From: a virus
DNA length: 63,142 bases
Direction: 5' to 3' (one strand)
Virus record (IMG/VR): IMGVR_UViG_3300021085_000001
Span: 1 to 63,142 of that record
Position numbers and translations under genes: made by a program. Each line of letters starts with the position of its first letter. Position 1 is the stretch's first letter. Under the pieces are notes generated by a model. That model saw only the letters and a program-made list of their open reading frames with translations, had not been told where the DNA came from and ran no database searches. Positions 3,715-53,092 of the stretch are shown in pieces.

Positions 3715-5310
3715 ATGGCAATACAATTCGGATCTCCACAGATCGTAAAAAATTTAAGCTTCAAGAAAGAAGCAAAAGACAAGTTAATTAGTGGCATAGA
3801 CAAACTAACAGAAGCAGTAGCAAGCACGCTAGGTGCTTCCGGTAGGACTGTCGTTCTTGAAGATGATTTTGGTAATCCTCACGTTACAAAAGATGGGGTG
3901 ACTGTAGCGAACTACATTAACTTAGAAGACCCAGTAGAAAACCTAGGGGTTACTATGCTTAAGCAAGCGTCTCGTAATACTGCTTCAAAAGCAGGAGACG
4001 GAACAACCACCTCAACAGTACTTGCTCAAAGTATCATTAAGAATTACTTTAAGTTAAAAGGCGAAGATTACTCATTCCGAGATATTAAAACAGGGATGGA
4101 CAAATTTATAAAACTAGCTGTTAAAAACTTAAACAAAAAAGCTTTACCTGTCGATGACAAAAGACTTAATCAAGTTTCTGTCATTTCGTGTAATAACGAT
4201 AACGAACTAGGTAATTTTATTGCTGAAGCTTTCCGAGCTGCGGGCGACAATGGAGTCGTTACGATGGAAACTTCACCAACTAACGAAACGTATATTGAAA
4301 CTGTAGACGGAACTCATATTAAGTCTACTAGTAAAAGTATGCATTTCTACACTAATAAAGAGAAAGAAGTGTCGGAACTTGAGAAACCACTAGTATTTCT
4401 ATGTGCCTCAGAAGTAAGTAATATCCGACGTATTCAGAACATATTAGAGTACGCGATTAAGTCCAACAGGTCGCTACTACTCATTGCCCCTTGCGAACAA
4501 CAAATCGTGTCTGCGCTAGCTATGAACCACGTAAAGGGCAATATTAAGTGCAATGTTATTGATCCTCCGTCATTCGGACTAAGACGAAAGGACATTCTCG
4601 ACGACATTGCCCTTCTAACGGGTGCTACAGTTATTGATGAAAGCTTAGGTGATTCATTAGATAATGTCACCCCAGAAGTGTTAGGGTCGGCCTCTAAGGC
4701 TATCATAGATACAGATGGAACTACTATAGCAATTGAAGAAGTTCCTGAAGGAGTAACCGAACGAGTTGAATATCTTCAGTCTCAATTAGATGAAGAAGAT
4801 CATATCGTAATGCGCCCACATTTAGAACAAAGGTTAGCTCTTCTAAACGGAGGAGTATCCATTGTGTATGTAGGCGGGGATACCGAAGTTGAAGTTTCTG
4901 AAAAGAAAGATAGAGTTGATGATGCTATACACGCAGTTCGCGCCGCAAAGAAAGAAGGTATTTTACCTGGAGGTGGTGCAGCGTTAAGTTATGTATCTGC
5001 ATTAACAAAGTTAACGGGCTCTAACGAAGGTGAAGAAGTTGGCATTAATATTATTAGAAATGCTTTGCATTCTCCATTTATGCGTATACTTCAAAATGCT
5101 GGATTGAATCCAGGCGATTATGAAGTAGAAGGATGGGGATACGGTGTTGACGTTATTGACGGAAAAGTTAAAGATATGCGTAGAGCAGGGATTATTGATC
5201 CACTGCTAGTTACCAAGTCTGCATTATTAAACGCTTCTTCGGTAGCTACAACTATTCTTTCAACTGATTGTGTAATCTCAAATATCCGCGACTATGAAAG
5301 CAATAGGTAA
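3715..5310 (+). CDS. groEL: Phage-encoded chaperonin GroEL
   Basis: A 531-residue 60-kDa chaperonin, close to the usual length of about 540. The nucleotide site is intact: LGASGRTVVLEDDFG (39-53), TKDGVTVA (58-65) and GDGTTT (94-99), with VDDAIHAVRAAKKEGILPGGG in the second equatorial part. The GGM-rich tail of bacterial GroEL is absent. It probably helps fold capsid or fibre proteins with the GroES-like protein just downstream, with which it overlaps by 17 bases in the reverse of the usual bacterial order. A promoter is possible in the AT-rich 30-bp gap upstream, but nothing is clear. Confidence 0.95.
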   Translation: MAIQFGSPQIVKNLSFKKEAKDKLISGIDKLTEAVASTLGASGRTVVLEDDFGNPHVTKDGVTVANYINLEDPVENLGVTMLKQASRNTASKAGDGTTTSTVLAQSIIKNYFKLKGEDYSFRDIKTGMDKFIKLAVKNLNKKALPVDDKRLNQVSVISCNNDNELGNFIAEAFRAAGDNGVVTMETSPTNETYIETVDGTHIKSTSKSMHFYTNKEKEVSELEKPLVFLCASEVSNIRRIQNILEYAIKSNRSLLLIAPCEQQIVSALAMNHVKGNIKCNVIDPPSFGLRRKDILDDIALLTGATVIDESLGDSLDNVTPEVLGSASKAIIDTDGTTIAIEEVPEGVTERVEYLQSQLDEEDHIVMRPHLEQRLALLNGGVSIVYVGGDTEVEVSEKKDRVDDAIHAVRAAKKEGILPGGGAALSYVSALTKLTGSNEGEEVGINIIRNALHSPFMRILQNAGLNPGDYEVEGWGYGVDVIDGKVKDMRRAGIIDPLLVTKSALLNASSVATTILSTDCVISNIRDYESNR

Positions 5311-13351: not shown

Positions 13352-15838
13352 ATGATTAATAAACAACTCATAAATCTATCATCACCTGCTACTAGCGGAG
13401 GCGGGAGTGGTAATCAAGAAGAAGGATTAATCTTACACTTAGATGCTAATGATGTAGATAGCTACGATGGAGATGGTACAGAATGGGTTGATATAACTAA
13501 CCACGAATATACGCCTACTACCAATGTATCGGAACATTTTAATACTGTTACTTATACTGGAACAGGTACAACGAACCCAATTACGGTCGGGTTTCAGCCA
13601 GATTTAATTTGGATAAAAAATAGAGACCAAACTGATTCTTACGCTATTGTTGATTCGGTAAGAGGTATTACATCTCCTGCACCTTACCTTGCATCAAACG
13701 AAACCAATGCAGAAGCAACATCTACTAATATGCCTACGTCTGTTCAGTCAGATGGTTTTACAATAACTGGAAGCGGCGGTAGAACTAACACAAGTGGAGA
13801 GGATTATGTTGCTTGGTGTTTTAAAGCAGGGGGTGCTCCTAGTGGTTCTGATAAAGTAAGTATAGATGGAACGTCTTATGCCACTATAAGCACAGCTGAA
13901 TTAACAGATGGAACTATACCTATTGATAAATTAAGCGTTAATACTAATCTAGGCTTTAGCATAGTTTCTTACAATGGTAATCAAGTTTCAAATGCAACAG
14001 TTGCTCACGGATTAGGTGTAAAGCCTGAATTGATTATTGTAAAGAATTTACAGTCGGCTGTATCTTGGGGTGTTTGGACTACTGGAATATCAGATAGTGA
14101 AGTTCTTAGACTTGACCAAATAGCAGCAAAAACAACCCCTGCAACTGCTTATTTTGAACCTCAAAACAATACCAGTAATTTTTTCAGTCTTGGAACAAAT
14201 GATGAAACTAATCACAATGACGATTACATAGCTTACTGCTTCGCTTCTAAAAGAGGTGTAAGTAAAGTAGGTAGTTACGTAGGAATAAGCGGAAGTCAAA
14301 AAATATACACGGGATTTGAGCCATCTTTTATTTTAATAAAAAAAACAAATACTTCAACTAATGGAGATTGGGCTGTTTTTGATAATGCTAGAGTTAATGG
14401 AACTGTAAAAGGACAATTATATCCCAGTGTAAATTATGCTGAAGAAAACAGAGATGGCTTAATATCTTTTAACAGAGATGGTTTCACACTAGAGAATAAT
14501 ACAGTTGGTCAAGTACATACAAGCGGACATAGATACATCTACTACGCAATAGCTAAAAACACTAACGAAACATCTCTTATACCAGATACTGATTTAGAGT
14601 TACATTTAGATGCAGCTAGTTTCCCAGAAAAAGGGGAAAGCGGATATAGTAATACTCCATCTACTTGGACTGACTCTAGTGGAAATAGCAATAATGGTAC
14701 TATCACAGGAGCTACGTTTGATTCCGAATTAGGCAACTATTTAGATTTAGACGGCTCTAGCGATAAGATAACTTTTGGTTCATCTGCTATAACTGCATTC
14801 AATTCAAATAATAGAACGGTAGAATTTTGGTTTAAATCTGATGACCTTTCAGCTACAAAAGTGATTTTTATTGCAGATGGAAGTGGTTATAGTTATGGAA
14901 GAACAACAATAATAACAACATCATCGGGTAACATTCAAGTGATGATTGGTAACAACGGGTCTTATCCGAATGTGTCTATAAGTGCAAATACTTGGTATCA
15001 TTTTGCAGTTTCTAAAAGTGGAACTAGCTATGAAGCGTTCTTAGATGGAGAATCAATAGGTACTGCTATCGCAAATACTTGGAACGATACAGTTGCTAGT
15101 CAGCTTAAAATAAGCGGAAATTTAAGCTCAACTTATCCTTTCGATGGGCAGGTAGGGCAGTTAAGATTATACTCTTCAGCACTTACACAAGACCAAATAA
15201 GACAAAACTATAACTTTACTAAGCCTAACTATCCTAATGGGTTTGATGGAGATATAAGCGGTGCTACCTGGAATTCCGCAGGTTACTTTCAGTTTGATGG
15301 TAGTAACGATGAAATAGAATTAACTTCATCACACCCTTATAGTAGCAACGCTGTACAAACTAATAGCGTAAAGTCAATAACGGGTTGGGTTAAGTTAGAC
15401 TCTGGAACTAGAGCAATGCTTTATTCAATATCTTCAACTGCAAACTCAAACTATTATTTTACCTGTCAAGTTAGAAATGATAGTAATGGAGTTTTTATGC
15501 AATGTAGAGATGGAGGCACTACTAATTCATTTATAGACAAAGCAACAAACTCAGCTCCAGATTCTAATTGGCATCACTATGTATTTCAAATAGACGGAGA
15601 TGAAAGACAGATATATATTGACGGAGTAAAAAGAACACTCACAAAAGATAATAGAGGTACAGCAACAGATAGTAGTTGGATTTCTTATCCTACTTATTCA
15701 TCATCTGCAAAACATAAGATACAAAAAGGTAGGGAGATTTCAGCTTATTATGGTACTGGAAAAGTTAGTAAAGTTAAACACTATACCAAACCGTTAACAC
15801 AAGCGGAAATAACAGCTTTATATAACGAAGGAGAATAA
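13352..15838 (+). CDS. Multi-domain fibre protein: DUF7483-like and two LamG-like domains
   Basis: An 828-residue protein. Two DUF7483-like blocks come first: VTYTGTGTTNPITVGFQPDL..IWIKNR with DGFTITG and YVAWCFKAGG, then a second block with VKPELIIVKN and YIAYCFASKRG, plus another half copy with FEPSFILIKK. Two LamG-like jelly rolls follow, near residues 408-620 (LELHLDAASFP, VEFWFKSDDL) and 630-828 (YFQFDGSNDEIEL, HHYVFQIDGDERQIYIDGVK). It is probably a surface-binding fibre or spike, and the last fibre gene before the lysis cassette. Confidence 0.75.
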   Translation: MINKQLINLSSPATSGGGSGNQEEGLILHLDANDVDSYDGDGTEWVDITNHEYTPTTNVSEHFNTVTYTGTGTTNPITVGFQPDLIWIKNRDQTDSYAIVDSVRGITSPAPYLASNETNAEATSTNMPTSVQSDGFTITGSGGRTNTSGEDYVAWCFKAGGAPSGSDKVSIDGTSYATISTAELTDGTIPIDKLSVNTNLGFSIVSYNGNQVSNATVAHGLGVKPELIIVKNLQSAVSWGVWTTGISDSEVLRLDQIAAKTTPATAYFEPQNNTSNFFSLGTNDETNHNDDYIAYCFASKRGVSKVGSYVGISGSQKIYTGFEPSFILIKKTNTSTNGDWAVFDNARVNGTVKGQLYPSVNYAEENRDGLISFNRDGFTLENNTVGQVHTSGHRYIYYAIAKNTNETSLIPDTDLELHLDAASFPEKGESGYSNTPSTWTDSSGNSNNGTITGATFDSELGNYLDLDGSSDKITFGSSAITAFNSNNRTVEFWFKSDDLSATKVIFIADGSGYSYGRTTIITTSSGNIQVMIGNNGSYPNVSISANTWYHFAVSKSGTSYEAFLDGESIGTAIANTWNDTVASQLKISGNLSSTYPFDGQVGQLRLYSSALTQDQIRQNYNFTKPNYPNGFDGDISGATWNSAGYFQFDGSNDEIELTSSHPYSSNAVQTNSVKSITGWVKLDSGTRAMLYSISSTANSNYYFTCQVRNDSNGVFMQCRDGGTTNSFIDKATNSAPDSNWHHYVFQIDGDERQIYIDGVKRTLTKDNRGTATDSSWISYPTYSSSAKHKIQKGREISAYYGTGKVSKVKHYTKPLTQAEITALYNEGE

Positions 15839-46663: not shown

Positions 46664-48415
46664 TTATCCGTCGCAGCTTAAACAATCTGGATCCATTGCA
46701 GCTGCCGCAATATCACCTCTTAATACTGATTCTGTTCTTGTGTAGTACAGTGTTTTAACACCACGCTTCCAAGCTTCCATATGTACTGTGTTCATCCATT
46801 TAGGAGTTGCTTCTGATGGAAATGCTAAATTCAAACTAACAGACTGGTCTATGTAGTCCTGTCGTATACCTGCTTGCTTAACTAGTTCTAACTGATTTAT
46901 CTCTTTAAATGTTTTGAATACGTTCTTTACTTTTTCGTAATCTTCCGCATGCTCTTGGGTAAGTCTTCCTGAGTGATCGTAAAACCATCCATCGAGTTCT
47001 TTAATGTCCTGAACGGATCCACCATCTGACATAATCTTGTCCCAAGTTTCTTTATTATCGATTCCAACTTTTCTTAATACTTTTTTAAGTTCTTTATTTT
47101 TTCTAATAAACGTACCTTTAGCTGATTGTTCTGTGAACACATTAGCAGCCCAAGGCTCAATACCTGGTGAAACGTTACCAGAAAGTTTTGAGTTAGATAC
47201 GGTTGGCGCTACAGCTCTTAAATGAGTGTTACGCATACCAGTACCAACACACCATAAAGGTTCTCCATAAACTTCAGCTAATTTTCTAGAAGCTCTTTCA
47301 GTTTCTATTTTTATCTTTGAGAATATCTCTCGGGTTTTGAACTGTGCCATTAACCCTTCGAAAGCGATCCCGTTCTTCTGAAGTAAGCTGTGCCAGCCCA
47401 ACACTCCTAATCCTAGGGCCCTTCCCTTTACAGCTGATCTCACAGAATTCTCGAATCCCCTCAGACCCTTCGCTCTCTGAATGAATTCTTCCAGGACACC
47501 GTCCAGGAACCAAGTCGCATCGTACACTAGATTTGTATCCTTCCATTCGTCGTATTTTTCTAAGTTTAATGATGATAAACAACAAACAAAACTGTGAGAC
47601 TCATCAGTATGAAGAGTAATCTCAGAGCAAATGTTTGTCATATGTACTTTTAATCCGTTCGCTTTGTAAGCTTCTGGATTAGCTTTGTTCGTGTTGCCTT
47701 TAAAGAGGATATATGGCTCACCAGTTGCTTTACGCTTTTGGATAAGTTTACTCCATTTTTGCCTTGCTTCTTGGTCTCCCGTTTCAAGCTTTCGCATAAA
47801 CTTATCGCCAACGACAGCACACTGATGTAAGTTAAGAGATTGCCTGTTGACGTCTCCTTTAGGTTCCCTAATTTCAATCCAATCGAGGAAGTCAGGGTGT
47901 TCAATATTGATATTAACTGATGCAGCTCCTCTTCTAACTGCACCTTGGTTTGTTGCGAGTATAGTTGAGTCGTAGATTTTGCAAAAAGGGACAACTCCGT
48001 CTGAAGTTCCATTACCTGTTATTCTGGCACCTGCGGGTCTAATCATATTAATACCTACTCCTACACCGCCGCCATGTTTAGCTAGGAGCATCATTTCTAA
48101 ATTTTTAGTTCCAATATCTGCTATAGAATCCGCAACATCAATACCGAAACAACTAATAGGCAAGCCACGATCAGTACCAGTATTACTCAGCACTGGACTA
48201 GCCAAACACAACCATCCTTTCCATATATAGTTAAAGAATACCTCCGCAAGCTCTGGTTTATATAATCTTCTTGCAACAGATTTTGAAACTCTTTCATATG
48301 CGTCTCTTGGTGTTTCTCCATCAAGCAAATATGACCCTCCAATAGTTTTTTTATAAACTTCAGTGTCTCCCCACTCTGGGTAGTCTTCACCTTTTTTCCA
48401 TGCACTATTCCACAT
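46664..48415 (-). CDS. nrdA: Ribonucleoside-diphosphate reductase alpha subunit, short class I type
   Basis: A 583-residue catalytic subunit that makes deoxynucleotides. Seen: SCFG (C89), TNICSEI (N261, C263, E265), CCLSSLNL (C278/C279), the radical-transfer pair YYTRT (Y557, Y558) and the C-terminal CLSC redox pair (578, 581). The protein starts where the 10-stranded barrel begins: the N-terminal ATP cone is missing, so dATP feedback is probably lost. A segment at about 47330-47560 has unusually G+C-rich codons. It is co-encoded with nrdB. Confidence 0.93.
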   Translation of the reverse strand: MWNSAWKKGEDYPEWGDTEVYKKTIGGSYLLDGETPRDAYERVSKSVARRLYKPELAEVFFNYIWKGWLCLASPVLSNTGTDRGLPISCFGIDVADSIADIGTKNLEMMLLAKHGGGVGVGINMIRPAGARITGNGTSDGVVPFCKIYDSTILATNQGAVRRGAASVNINIEHPDFLDWIEIREPKGDVNRQSLNLHQCAVVGDKFMRKLETGDQEARQKWSKLIQKRKATGEPYILFKGNTNKANPEAYKANGLKVHMTNICSEITLHTDESHSFVCCLSSLNLEKYDEWKDTNLVYDATWFLDGVLEEFIQRAKGLRGFENSVRSAVKGRALGLGVLGWHSLLQKNGIAFEGLMAQFKTREIFSKIKIETERASRKLAEVYGEPLWCVGTGMRNTHLRAVAPTVSNSKLSGNVSPGIEPWAANVFTEQSAKGTFIRKNKELKKVLRKVGIDNKETWDKIMSDGGSVQDIKELDGWFYDHSGRLTQEHAEDYEKVKNVFKTFKEINQLELVKQAGIRQDYIDQSVSLNLAFPSEATPKWMNTVHMEAWKRGVKTLYYTRTESVLRGDIAAAAMDPDCLSCDG

Positions 48416-48578: not shown

Positions 48579-48927
48579 TTGTCATTAAATATATTATGTA
48601 ACCAATTGTTACGTTGAAATTAACCATTACTAGGTTCCATTGTTTTGCAACCCAAACTTGCGGTGTTGAAACAATACCACCTATTATATAAGTAATAGCA
48701 CCAATATTACCATAAGGCAAAAGATATGGAGATACCATTATAAAAGCTGTTCCCATATACCCTAACCTATTTGCAATACGTTCTTTAGCGCTAAGTCTTC
48801 TGTCTTGCACTAATAATCTTAAAAAGCTTTTCTTCCATCTAAATTCACACTTAGAGCAAGTTTTCTTTCCGTCATGTTTAAATTTAGAATTGCTTTTCTT
48901 TTTCTTACAAATATTACACTCTCTCAT
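48571..48927 (-). CDS. Zn-ribbon plus membrane protein
   Basis: A 118-residue protein. Start taken at the ATG of TAATG, overlapping nrdB's stop. CNICKKKKSNSKF and CSKCEFRWKK form a CxxC...CxxC zinc-ribbon; then three hydrophobic segments (LGYMGTAFIMVSPYLLPYG, IGAITYIIGGIVSTPQVWV, LVMVNFNVTIGYIIYLM). The membrane part resembles short conserved proteins of marine phages. Function is unknown. Confidence 0.6.
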   Translation of the reverse strand: MRECNICKKKKSNSKFKHDGKKTCSKCEFRWKKSFLRLLVQDRRLSAKERIANRLGYMGTAFIMVSPYLLPYGNIGAITYIIGGIVSTPQVWVAKQWNLVMVNFNVTIGYIIYLMTNG

Positions 48928-49895
48928 TACCACATATCTTCAAAATCTTCTCCTTCACCTGCTTTGGAATAATCAGTAGGACGAACAGCAAAAAAATCAG
49001 TATGGGTAACCCCACCAGTAAGATGGTAGAACCAGTCGAGGTTGTTTGCTCCTGCTTCATCAAATGCAAAGTATTGCCCGAGGTCGAGGTAACCGAGTTC
49101 TGATAGTTTTTCATTTAATCTTTTTCTAATAAACTGTTTTAAATCGTATGCTTTAATGCCTTCAATGTCTCCCATCTCAAACATCTTATCTATGTACTTT
49201 TCTTCAGCCGTGAGCATTGTTTTAGCGGCTTCTAAGACATCTTCTCTGCACCCCTCTAATAATGTATCATCTTCTTCGCACATATGTCTAAAAAGCTGAC
49301 AACCCATTTTAGAATGAAGAGACTCATCTCTCACAGACCACTTCATTTGTTGCCCAATACCTTTAAGTAAATTACGTAACTGAAAAGAATACAATACAGC
49401 AAAAGCACTATATAACGATACACCTTCAGCGAAAGCTGAGAAAATGGCCAAGGAGCGGCCAATAGACCTGGGGTTATTATCAGTAGTAGCAACAAGATTA
49501 TCAAATCTCTCAGATGTCGCAGGTTCGTGTAAAAACGCTTCATAATCTTCTAAGCCTAATGTTTCATTTAAATAACTATAAGCTACAGCATGAATAGTTT
49601 CTTGCGAGCCAAACATCATAGCCATCTGTTGTATCTCATGCTTAGGAAACCAACCAACAACTTTTTGCGTCCAATAATCAGAAACAGCACACTCTGTTTG
49701 CGCAAATCCTAATAATATATTACCTACTAAATGTTTTTCTTTTTCTGTTAGCTTTTCGTTCCAATCCTTTAGGTCACCTGACATAGGTATTTCGGTGTGT
49801 AACCAGAATGCTTGAGCCTGTTTAAGCCATCCCTCAGTATAGTACTCTGGGTATTCGAACGGCTTATATGCAATTCTTTCATCAAATAATCCCAT
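48927..49895 (-). CDS. nrdB: Ribonucleoside-diphosphate reductase beta subunit
   Basis: A 322-residue radical-generating subunit. The di-iron ligands can be traced: E68 (QTE), E99 and H102 (SQETIH), E157 (AFAEG), E191 and H194 (RDESLH). Tyrosine Y106 (HAVAYSYL) is at the radical site four residues after H102, so a class Ia/Ib-type stable tyrosyl radical is expected. It pairs with nrdA two small genes downstream. Confidence 0.93.
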   Translation of the reverse strand: MGLFDERIAYKPFEYPEYYTEGWLKQAQAFWLHTEIPMSGDLKDWNEKLTEKEKHLVGNILLGFAQTECAVSDYWTQKVVGWFPKHEIQQMAMMFGSQETIHAVAYSYLNETLGLEDYEAFLHEPATSERFDNLVATTDNNPRSIGRSLAIFSAFAEGVSLYSAFAVLYSFQLRNLLKGIGQQMKWSVRDESLHSKMGCQLFRHMCEEDDTLLEGCREDVLEAAKTMLTAEEKYIDKMFEMGDIEGIKAYDLKQFIRKRLNEKLSELGYLDLGQYFAFDEAGANNLDWFYHLTGGVTHTDFFAVRPTDYSKAGEGEDFEDMW

Positions 49896-50684: not shown

Positions 50685-51028
50685 AGTTTAAAAAGTTTCC
50701 ATCTTAAAGGGAAAGACTCATTAGCCCTTCCCTTACATTCTATTATATAGTCTTTGCCTGTGAAGTCAGGTGTATACTTAATTCCCAGTATTTTCTTTTG
50801 CCCTCGGTTAGTAAAATCACCTTTCCCGTTGGCTTGCTTTTCGTAAGCTTCATTCTCAAAACTAAATCCCTCGACCAACTGGAAAACTTCACCTTCATAT
50901 TCTTCAAATAATTTTTCTTTTTTAAGAGCTATATATGTATACTTTTCTAATCCTGATGCAAAATTAATACCGTCAAGTGTTGTTTTCTTAGCTACAACCG
51001 GGCCACGCTTTTTGCTTCTTCTTCTCAT
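50582..51028 (-). CDS. Endonuclease I-like / DUF1064 nuclease
   Basis: A 148-residue protein. FASGLEKYTYIALKKEKLF..Y and IKYTPDFTGKDYIIECKGR form a PD-(D/E)xK site (PD ... ExK), and the end KPQNQKDVDMMIQMIKE is typical of DUF1064/T7 endonuclease I-like proteins. It may resolve branched DNA in replication or packaging. It ends inside the neighbouring small gene. Confidence 0.75.
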   Translation of the reverse strand: MRRRSKKRGPVVAKKTTLDGINFASGLEKYTYIALKKEKLFEEYEGEVFQLVEGFSFENEAYEKQANGKGDFTNRGQKKILGIKYTPDFTGKDYIIECKGRANESFPLRWKLFKLWLNKNKDGRTCYKPQNQKDVDMMIQMIKEKRKK

Positions 51029-51372
51029 TATTTTACATTTGTATATGTTACATTAATATCTCCAGGGTACATAGTTGTTGTAGTTGTACCTAATGAATCA
51101 GGTGGACCAGGGTCTGGTGTAGACGCTATAGTATCTTCTTCAAGATAGTCTTTAAGTATCTTATCGGCTAATACGTCAGTGACTTCATTTTTTAGTTTTT
51201 CAATATAGTTAGCAGCATCAAGTAGTTCTTCTTGTAAATGATTAAGCCATTTGTGTAAACCAGGCTCATCATCGTGAAGCGTTACACCATATTTTTTGTA
51301 ACCTACAGAGCTACGCTCGTCTAATCTTTTGATTACTTGTTTTACTATTTGATCTTGTGTAGTTATCTTCAT
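51028..51372 (-). CDS. MazG-like all-alpha NTP pyrophosphohydrolase-like protein
   Basis: A 114-residue protein. The first 65 residues (RLDERSSVGYKKYGVTLHDD; WLNHLQEELLDAANYIEKL) follow the helical, acidic pattern of phage MazG-like proteins. The tail is Pro/Thr-rich and of different character. It lies directly after the GIY-YIG/MazG fusion, so the operon has two related folds. Substrate unknown. Confidence 0.6.
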   Translation of the reverse strand: MKITTQDQIVKQVIKRLDERSSVGYKKYGVTLHDDEPGLHKWLNHLQEELLDAANYIEKLKNEVTDVLADKILKDYLEEDTIASTPDPGPPDSLGTTTTTMYPGDINVTYTNVK

Positions 51373-52178
51373 TAATTATTTTTTACGAAAGTTCCGTTAA
51401 TCATTTTACCTTTACGTGTTGAAATCTCTCCATACGCAGACTCAATACAATCTTCTATAGTAAATCCTTCTAAGTGTGCTAAGTTAGTTAAAACAACTAT
51501 CATATCACCTATAGCGTCCTTTATTTCAGGTTTATCATCTTTAAGTAAAGCTTGAGCCAGTTCACCTGCTTCTTCTAGCAGTTTTATATATTGAACACGA
51601 CCATTACCTTTAGCATACAAACCTCTTTCTTCAGCCCAAGTTCTTATTAGATCAAACATAACATATTCATATGTTGTTCGATCTTTCATTAGAGTTCCCC
51701 TAGCTGGTTCTTTGAACTCTTTAGCTTCTGCCATTGCTTTGTTATAAATATAACAGGTTTTAGGACCAAACTGACTAGCATGTACATTAGATATAACCCA
51801 CTCAATTTTAGTCTCATTGTCCAAGACATATTCTCCATAACTATTTTTTATTACTATATCTTGCAGAAAGCTAGCATCTATATCTTTTTTAGATATTTTA
51901 AATGTGGTTGTAGCTTCAGAAGATGTACATTTGTTCATACTTTTTTGCTTTTTAAATAAATCTTTATATAACTGCCTATCTACTTTGTAACCCAAGTCTT
52001 TCTGTAGAACACGTTCAGCGTTTGAGGCTTCAACAATATCATTGCTTTGAAACAATATCTCATACTCTCCTTCTTTATAACCTTGCGTCTCAACAACTCT
52101 TTTTTGTATATCCGTTGTACACCCAACTTTTATGCCTGGTATATGATATACTTTGTATTTACCTGTTGGAATTTGCAT
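51372..52178 (-). CDS. GIY-YIG-like domain fused to MazG
   Basis: A 268-residue two-domain protein. Residues 1-75, YKVYHIPGIKVGCTTDIQKR with a later ASNAERVLQKDLGY Glu, follow the T5orf172/GIY-YIG-like nuclease pattern. Residues about 165-262 (VQYIKLLEEAGELAQALLKD; AIGDMIVVLTNLAHLEG) carry MazG's EExxE and xxxD helices and hydrolyse NTPs or dNTPs. It sits next to the ThyA homologue and may remove dCTP or signalling nucleotides; the fusion is unusual. Confidence 0.75.
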   Translation of the reverse strand: MQIPTGKYKVYHIPGIKVGCTTDIQKRVVETQGYKEGEYEILFQSNDIVEASNAERVLQKDLGYKVDRQLYKDLFKKQKSMNKCTSSEATTTFKISKKDIDASFLQDIVIKNSYGEYVLDNETKIEWVISNVHASQFGPKTCYIYNKAMAEAKEFKEPARGTLMKDRTTYEYVMFDLIRTWAEERGLYAKGNGRVQYIKLLEEAGELAQALLKDDKPEIKDAIGDMIVVLTNLAHLEGFTIEDCIESAYGEISTRKGKMINGTFVKNN

Positions 52179-52261: not shown

Positions 52262-53092
52262 TTAATTTCCGACGTTGAGGTCTGCTTTGATTGGTGGGTG
52301 TGGTTCATATCCTGCTATATTAATCATTTCATGCGTTGGTATTCTTAAAAATCTTCCGGCCCCCTCAACAATATCCAATCCCCAATCGACGCTAACATTA
52401 GGAAGTTTCCTAAAATCACGGGACAACTGTTCTTTAGCTTGATCGATATGATTGTTGTAGAGATGACAATCACCAAGAGACGCAATAAGTTGCCCAGGTA
52501 CATAACCAGTACCTTTTGCGAGCATAAGTAAAAGTAACCCATACATTGCAAAATCATAAGGAAGACCAAGAAATACATCGGCTGATCGCTGATTCCACAT
52601 AAGATCCATTTTTCCATCATTTATATATATTTGAAAACCATAATGGCATGGAGGCAAAGCCATATCATCAATATCAGATGCGTTCCAAGCGTTAACAATA
52701 AGGCGGCGACTGGACGGATTGTTTTTGATTTCACGAATAAGTTTTGTAATCTGGTCAACACCATTAAAGTTCCTCCACTGAACACCGTAAACAGGACCAA
52801 GAGTCCCATCTGTTCTACCGGACCGTTCATAATCCGCATTCCAGTAATTAAGCCCATTATCATTAAGATACCCAATATCAGATCGTCCTTGAAGTATCCA
52901 TAGTATTTCTGTAACTGCATGATTAAAATATATTTTTTTAGTTGTTAATAAAGGAAATCCTGCTGACATATCATGCCGTAGTATTCTTCCAAAGACTGAT
53001 CGCGTCCCAACGCCTGTTCTATCCTCTTTTTGTTTTCCTCCGTAGACAAGTGATGATAGTAATCCTCTATACTCTTCTTGTACATTATTCAT
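52262..53092 (-). CDS. Thymidylate synthase homologue, dCMP-type (possible dCMP hydroxymethylase)
   Basis: A 276-residue ThyA fold with catalytic C149 (LPPCHYGFQ), phosphate-binding R129-R130 (SRR), R169SADVFLGLP and H210-x-Y212 (DCHLYNNH). The base-reading residue that is Asn177 in E. coli ThyA (LPFN) is Asp here (LPYD, D180, codon GAT at 52553-52555). In T4 dCMP hydroxymethylase and dCMP-selective ThyA mutants this Asp selects cytosine. So it may make hydroxymethyl-dCMP rather than dTMP. Plain ThyA is the alternative. Confidence 0.8.
   Translation of the reverse strand: MNNVQEEYRGLLSSLVYGGKQKEDRTGVGTRSVFGRILRHDMSAGFPLLTTKKIYFNHAVTEILWILQGRSDIGYLNDNGLNYWNADYERSGRTDGTLGPVYGVQWRNFNGVDQITKLIREIKNNPSSRRLIVNAWNASDIDDMALPPCHYGFQIYINDGKMDLMWNQRSADVFLGLPYDFAMYGLLLLMLAKGTGYVPGQLIASLGDCHLYNNHIDQAKEQLSRDFRKLPNVSVDWGLDIVEGAGRFLRIPTHEMINIAGYEPHPPIKADLNVGN

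What the first reader, a model, noticed from the sequence alone, without database searches (positions are those of the whole stretch)
52262..53092. ThyA homologue carries the cytosine-selecting Asp: possible hydroxymethylcytosine DNA
Catalytic C149 and phosphate-binding residues are kept, but the residue equal to E. coli Asn177 is Asp180 (LPYD). In T4 dCMP hydroxymethylase the same place is Asp, and Asn-to-Asp changes in thymidylate synthase shift preference to dCMP. With two MazG-like proteins next door (one could destroy dCTP) and RNR in the operon, a modified cytosine in phage DNA is plausible.
Basis: partly seen in the sequence, partly recalled or inferred. Interest (0 to 1): 0.75.

Follow-up and report, generated by a model that had tools for sequence, protein, structure and literature searches.

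The report
Phage enzyme likely methylating cytosine precursors
A gene in this marine phage, annotated as a thymine-making enzyme, carries the one amino-acid change that redirects such enzymes to cytosine, and it sits beside a nucleotide-destroying partner, so the phage probably builds DNA with methylated cytosine, which would shield it from bacterial restriction enzymes; the chemistry is untested.

Summary
The minus-strand ThyA homologue (52262-53092, 276 aa) has Asp180 where E. coli ThyA has Asn177, and Cys149 is intact. Asp is invariant in the 80 closest viral homologues. It marks a supported clade next to Asn-type phage enzymes; a second, separate Asp clade also exists.

The cytosine part of the reading gains support. 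A MazG pyrophosphohydrolase adjoins Asp-type genes in about 95% of loci and Asn-type genes in none found. In the query's clade no locus avoids C-containing 4-bp palindromes (0/85), whereas TS-free terminase relatives often do (51/61).

The hydroxymethyl part is not supported by sequence. The published hydroxymethylase signature (Asp/Glu three residues before the catalytic Cys) is not met: the query has Leu146, as in methylating synthases. I favour a dCMP methylase giving 5-methylcytosine DNA, as in phage XP12, with 5hmC as main rival.

Caveats: the site-avoidance contrast is one evolutionary event; the other Asp clade does avoid restriction sites (17/21); product and virion DNA are untested. 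The MazG partner is fused to a GIY-YIG-like domain, suggesting a compact counterpart of T4's dCTPase and host-DNA nuclease. New variant of a known kind.

The parts
52262..53092 (-). Asp177-type thymidylate synthase homologue, predicted dCMP methylase (276 aa)
52553..52555 (-). codon of Asp180 (= E. coli Asn177), predicted cytosine-selecting residue
52646..52648 (-). codon of catalytic Cys149
   Evidence: computed from residue number
52655..52657 (-). codon of Leu146, three before Cys: TS-type residue where hydroxymethylases have Asp/Glu
   Evidence: PMC6400193
51372..52178 (-). GIY-YIG-like + MazG fusion (268 aa), predicted (d)NTP pyrophosphohydrolase, adjacent to the TS
51966..52157 (-). GIY-YIG-like (T5orf172) N-terminal domain; Y11, G19, R27 and E55 invariant in 163 long homologues
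51411..51626 (-). MazG domain; E202, E203, E206 and D225 invariant
51028..51372 (-). small conserved protein following MazG (114 aa), function unknown; a MazG-like relation was not confirmed
48927..49895 (-). ribonucleotide reductase small subunit (context, not specific to base modification)
46664..48415 (-). ribonucleotide reductase large subunit (context)

Best explanation
The gene makes a dCMP methylase, not a thymidylate synthase. Asp180 selects and protonates cytosine; Cys149 attacks C6; methylene-THF supplies the carbon; the TS-type pocket (Leu146, Trp84, C-terminal tail) lets hydride transfer finish the reaction, giving 5-methyl-dCMP and dihydrofolate. The adjacent MazG enzyme removes dCTP by hydrolysing it to dCMP, which both feeds the methylase and keeps plain C out of phage DNA; its GIY-YIG-like domain may also cut unmodified host DNA. 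After phosphorylation by host kinases, 5-methyl-dCTP replaces dCTP, giving 5mC DNA that most restriction enzymes cannot cut. SHOWN here: residues, conservation, clade, linkage, lack of site avoidance. INFERRED: substrate, product, MazG specificity, nuclease role, incorporation.
For: Asp at 177 in 80/80 closest homologues, with two further co-changed pocket residues. N229D/N177D turns TS into a dCMP methylase, and Asp177 marks TS on contigs selected for modified cytosine (PMC8670742). Leu at -3 in 70/70 clade representatives, whereas T4 gp42, SPO1 gp29 and the L133 type have Asp there. AXL1, a close XP12 relative with restriction-resistant DNA, has the same GLPYD motif beside a pyrophosphohydrolase. 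MazG is adjacent at 80/80 close relatives and 102/111 pattern-found Asp loci versus 0/119 Asn-type viral and 0/76 Asn-type cellular loci; Pfam on 145 neighbours of Asn-type TS gives MazG in at most one. The linkage holds in two separate Asp clades. Only one TS and no Thy1 or dCMP deaminase in 29 clade records. No C-site avoidance: 0/85 clade loci versus 32/81 Asn-type virus loci and 51/61 TS-free-family loci. Fully 5mC XP12 DNA resists 90% of type II enzymes (PMC7653180).
Against: The second Asp177+MazG clade does avoid GATC/CATG/CTAG in 17/21 loci, so the gene pair does not always relax avoidance. TS+ phages form one clade in the terminase tree, so the avoidance contrast is one event and host differences could explain it. 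MetaGPA flagged 177 and 147, not 143, and its validated enzyme acts on 5hmC, so Leu143 may not exclude hydroxymethylation. His147 is unchanged here. No phage DHFR, although reductive methylation makes dihydrofolate. E. coli Trp83, which controls solvent access, is not conserved, though this is also common in Asn-type TS. One of 29 clade records has a carbamoyltransferase. No dedicated 5-methyl-dCMP kinase was identified.
Confidence: 0.5

Rival explanations
1. It is a dCMP hydroxymethylase: the methylene intermediate is hydrated and the phage DNA carries 5hmC, possibly further decorated.
For: Asp180; altered solvent-gating region; MetaGPA's modified-cytosine contigs yielded a 5hmC carbamoyltransferase, and position 143 was not flagged there; one clade member (L038/G011) encodes a carbamoyltransferase.
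Against: Published signature absent: Leu146 instead of Asp/Glu at -3, no Ser/Thr before the catalytic Tyr, C-terminal tail kept. The carbamoyltransferase occurs in 1 of 29 records, 16 kb from the TS among late genes, and not in the window.
Confidence: 0.2
2. It is an ordinary thymidylate synthase that tolerates Asp and makes dTMP.
For: Fold, catalytic and folate residues are canonical; it is the only TS in the phage; phage TS often sit with nucleotide genes.
Against: Asn177->Asp shifts preference to dCMP in two studied TS (PMC8670742); invariance across the clade, co-changed pocket residues, MazG linkage absent from Asn-type TS.
Confidence: 0.13
3. It methylates dCMP, but 5-methyl-dCMP is deaminated to dTMP: a bypass to thymidylate, not a base modification.
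For: A 'new thymidylate biosynthesis' was reported for XP12 infection (title of Kuo 1982, cited in PMC11946847); AXL1 has a dCMP deaminase in the cluster.
Against: No dCMP deaminase in 29 clade records including the window; does not explain the lack of site avoidance.
Confidence: 0.08
4. The lack of restriction-site avoidance is unrelated to the enzyme: these pelagic phages simply meet few restriction systems. (This rival concerns only the footprint and can be true together with any of the others.)
For: TS+ phages are one clade, giving one independent contrast; some TS-free phages also show no avoidance; the second Asp clade shows avoidance.
Against: 0/85 loci in a diverse clade, while TS-free relatives show avoidance repeatedly (11/15 records).
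Confidence: 0.3

Closest known systems
Xanthomonas phage XP12 / Stenotrophomonas phage AXL1 TS (XP12-type dCMP methylase)
   Same: TS homologue with Asp at 177 in the same GLPYD motif; adjacent nucleotide pyrophosphohydrolase; AXL1 DNA resists C-containing-site enzymes and XP12 DNA is 5mC.
   Different: Very distant sequence; AXL1 has DHFR and dCMP deaminase in the cluster and Asn/Pro at 143/147; the clade here has neither gene and keeps Leu/His. XP12's own sequence was not in the collection.
T4 gp42 dCMP hydroxymethylase (with gp56 dCTPase and EndoII)
   Same: Asp at 177; partner that may remove dCTP; GIY-YIG-type nuclease in the pathway (EndoII; PMC1564403).
   Different: No Asp at -3, no Ser near Tyr, C-terminal tail present; far apart in the tree; no glucosyltransferase seen nearby.
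Asp177 TS on modified-cytosine contigs of MetaGPA (eLife 2021, PMC8670742)
   Same: Asp177 and co-occurring PRA-PH/MazG domains.
   Different: Those also differ at 147; His is kept here. Their TS co-occur with carbamoyltransferase and dCMP deaminase, which are essentially absent here.
Canonical ThyA (E. coli)
   Same: Fold, nucleophile, folate and phosphate residues, Leu143, C-terminal tail.
   Different: Asn177 replaced by Asp; Ile79->Tyr and Ser180->Met.

Membership tests
Thymidylate synthase superfamily (PF00303) | significant profile match over full length with catalytic Cys | tested here: met
Canonical dUMP thymidylate synthase | Asn at E. coli 177 | tested here: not met
   Asp180
dCMP hydroxymethylase (T4 gp42 type) | Asp at E. 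coli 177 | tested here: met
dCMP hydroxymethylase (T4 gp42 type) | Asp/Glu three residues before the catalytic Cys (PMC6400193) | tested here: not met
   Leu146; Leu in 70/70 clade representatives
dCMP hydroxymethylase (T4 gp42 type) | Ser/Thr near the catalytic Tyr (T4 Ser94/Tyr96) | tested here: not met
   Pro-Val-Tyr102 in the query
dCMP hydroxymethylase (T4 gp42 type) | lack of the TS C-terminal tail | tested here: not met
   tail present
dCMP hydroxymethylase (T4 gp42 type) | 5-hydroxymethyl product | not testable with these tools
   needs assay or LC-MS
XP12-type dCMP methylase | Asp at 177 without the hydroxymethylase Asp at -3 | tested here: met
XP12-type dCMP methylase | adjacent nucleotide pyrophosphohydrolase | tested here: met
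   (AXL1)
XP12-type dCMP methylase | DHFR and dCMP deaminase in the cluster (as in AXL1) | tested here: not met
   0 of 29 records; seen in AXL1, may not be a defining feature of the enzyme, so the query is called 'works like', not a member
XP12-type dCMP methylase | 5-methyl-dCMP product and 5mC virion DNA | not testable with these tools
   needs assay or LC-MS
MazG-type pyrophosphohydrolase (partner) | EExxE and downstream D motif | tested here: met
   E202, E203, E206, D225 invariant
dCTPase (partner) | dCTP as preferred substrate | not testable with these tools
   inferred from linkage only
GIY-YIG nuclease (partner N-domain) | conserved Arg and Glu plus GIY-YIG core | tested here: inconclusive
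   weak T5orf172 match just over its cut-off; candidate catalytic Arg27 and Glu55 invariant

The most novel reading that the evidence does not exclude
A large clade of marine Bacteroidota-type podoviruses replaces cytosine with 5-methylcytosine using a two-gene module: an independently evolved Asp177 TS (dCMP methylase) and a single fused protein joining a host-DNA nuclease domain (GIY-YIG) to a dCTPase (MazG). The pair would replace three separate T4 functions (gp42, gp56, EndoII) and would have released the clade from restriction-site avoidance.
Probability: 0.3. Interest if true: 0.75.

Novelty: new variant of a known kind. Interest (0 to 1): 0.57.

Why it matters
Wholesale 5mC replacement is known from very few phages (XP12 and kin). 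If true here, it is common in marine Bacteroidota-type phages. It would link a single residue plus a fused partner gene to the visible loss of restriction-site avoidance in genomes, giving a sequence-only way to predict modified DNA. Many such phages are annotated simply as encoding 'thymidylate synthase'.

Tried and rejected
Hydroxymethylase signature: looked for, not met. Second MazG-like gene (51028-51372): no Pfam support. Direct comparison with XP12: accession MT664984 not held; AXL1 used instead. Position 176 (Phe->Tyr) was not used as evidence because my search pattern selected it. Terminase relatives on short contigs cannot show TS absence, so only long records were used. TET/JBP search was negative but no control rang, so uninformative. 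DNA C5-methyltransferase PF00145: none in 29 records, controls rang. Carbamoyltransferase in one record: late region, no homologue in the window. The independent-pairs test had only one pair, so there is no phylogenetically corrected significance. The VIA-align list held TS entries only and says nothing about hydroxymethylases.

Full report
WHAT IS THERE. The window is a 63,142-base viral record, linear, apparently incomplete. Its terminase matches Flavobacterium elemo phages, Cellulophaga podoviruses and ctfjg026, so it is a marine Bacteroidota-type podovirus. The finding's gene is on the minus strand, 52262-53092, 276 aa, starting ATG and ending in a stop. It is a thymidylate synthase homologue (PF00303, E 9e-88), with AlphaFold pLDDT 85 and Z about 33 to ThyA structures.

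THE RESIDUE. Alignment with E. coli ThyA, T4 gp42, SPO1 gp29 and AXL1 gp63 puts Asp180 at E. coli Asn177; the codon is 52553-52555. The nucleophile, phosphate-binding arginines, folate Asp and deoxyribose residues are kept. All 80 closest viral homologues have Asp there. In an expanded set (258 representatives, part of it selected by motif) the query's clade also has Tyr for Ile79 and Met for Ser180, which Asn-type enzymes lack.

FAMILY TREE. With positions 79, 143, 147, 176, 177 and 180 removed, the query's Asp clade has 100/98 support and sits beside Asn-type phage TS (98/90). A second Asp clade (100/99) branches elsewhere. T4 gp42, AXL1 and the L133 type are further, very long, uncertainly placed branches. 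The query's Asp is thus most simply an independent gain from an Asn-type phage TS; parsimony cannot prove the direction.

METHYL OR HYDROXYMETHYL. The ternary-structure paper on T4 dCMP hydroxymethylase (PMC6400193) gives signatures of hydroxymethylases: Asp/Glu three residues before the catalytic Cys, which activates the water; a Ser/Thr near the catalytic Tyr; and, for T4, no C-terminal tail. T4 gp42, SPO1 gp29, the Lucjan/WP2 TS and the L133 type all have Asp at that place. The query has Leu146, Pro-Val-Tyr and the tail, as TS does; Leu is universal in its clade (70/70). Asn->Asp in TS is reported to give a dCMP methylase (Liu & Santi 1992 and Hardy & Nalivaika 1992, cited in PMC8670742). 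I therefore predict 5-methyl-dCMP. A caution: MetaGPA found Asp177 in modified-cytosine contigs and flagged 177 and 147 but not 143, while its validated enzyme acts on 5hmC, so Leu at 143 may not exclude hydroxymethylation.

THE PARTNER. The next gene (51372-52178) is a MazG protein. It follows the TS in 148 of 150 loci of the query's clade and 34 of 38 of the second clade (some contigs are counted twice). Within 1 kb it is found at 80/80 close relatives, 102/111 motif-found Asp loci and 4/4 genome-collection Asp loci, versus 0/119 Asn-type viral and 0/76 Asn-type cellular loci. That profile was trained on the module itself, so I checked with Pfam: 145 direct neighbours of Asn-type TS give DHFR most often and MazG in at most one, while 140 neighbours of second-clade TS give 23 MazG. 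AXL1 has an adjacent PRA-PH enzyme. MetaGPA also reports co-occurring PRA-PH. MazG is by itself common in phages that are not known to be modified, so the linkage, not the gene, is the evidence. In long forms the protein has an N-terminal GIY-YIG-like domain with invariant Tyr11, Gly19, Arg27, Glu55, and a MazG motif with invariant Glu202, Glu203, Glu206, Asp225 (163 sequences). T4 EndoII, a GIY-YIG nuclease, degrades unmodified host DNA for reuse (PMC1564403). A similar role here is only a hypothesis.

OTHER GENES. In 29 long records of the clade including the window there is one TS each and no DHFR, dCMP deaminase, Thy1, DNA polymerase A or C5 DNA methyltransferase (controls rang). The records may be fragments. 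One record has a carbamoyltransferase in its late region; the window has none.

A GENOMIC FOOTPRINT. Phages with plain cytosine often purge 4-bp palindromes. ctfjg026 has no GATC or CCGG; elemoF has no CATG, CCGG, CGCG or GGCC in the 42 kb examined. In the query's clade 0 of 85 loci show any strongly depleted C-containing palindrome, against 32 of 81 Asn-type virus loci. Among terminase relatives: 2 of 46 in the window's family, 51 of 61 in the ctfjg026 family, 24 of 48 in the elemo family; long ctfjg-family records have no TS. Full 5mC makes XP12 DNA resist 90% of type II enzymes (PMC7653180), so 5mC would suffice. Limits: all TS+ phages are one clade in the terminase tree, so this is one independent contrast; host differences could explain it; and the second Asp clade does avoid sites (17 of 21). 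This footprint is suggestive, not decisive.

VERDICT. Observation confirmed. Interpretation partly supported: cytosine as substrate is likely, hydroxymethylation is not indicated. Best single explanation, at about one in two: a dCMP methylase plus dCTP-removing partner giving 5mC DNA. Substrate, product, partner specificity and virion base are all inferred.

Noticed in passing
L133:3445-4254, L122, L113, L139, L091, L189: A distinct TS type with both Asp177 and Asp at -3 (true hydroxymethylase signature), beside an NMP-kinase-like gene and a PALP-like (PLP enzyme) gene, with a dCMP deaminase in the cluster: better 5hmC or hypermodification candidates than the query.
   Followed up: partly
38 loci, e.g. 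L103, L106, L116, L146: A second, separately branching Asp177 TS clade (Trp79, Tyr/Phe147), also next to MazG, yet its phages strongly avoid GATC, CATG and CTAG. Unexplained.
   Followed up: partly
L504-L583 (ctfjg026-type terminase family): Near-total absence of GATC (0 observed of 40-90 expected) and other C-containing palindromes in most TS-free phages of this family.
   Followed up: partly
29 clade records incl. window: No DNA polymerase A detected; polymerase B was not tested, so which polymerase copies these genomes is open.
   Followed up: partly
L656 (G011:C1:63386-64870): A TobZ/NodU-like carbamoyltransferase (494 aa) in one clade member, next to late genes; role unknown.
   Followed up: partly
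L037:1870-2304 and relatives (21 loci): A CAP-domain secreted-type protein inserted directly downstream of the TS in some clade members.
   Followed up: no
L321, L322: Clade-type phage TS on contigs binned to a 'Rickettsiales' MAG (MED657), probably binning contamination.
   Followed up: no
window 3715-5310 and 13352-15838: Phage GroEL chaperonin, and a large laminin-G/DUF7483 protein.
   Followed up: no
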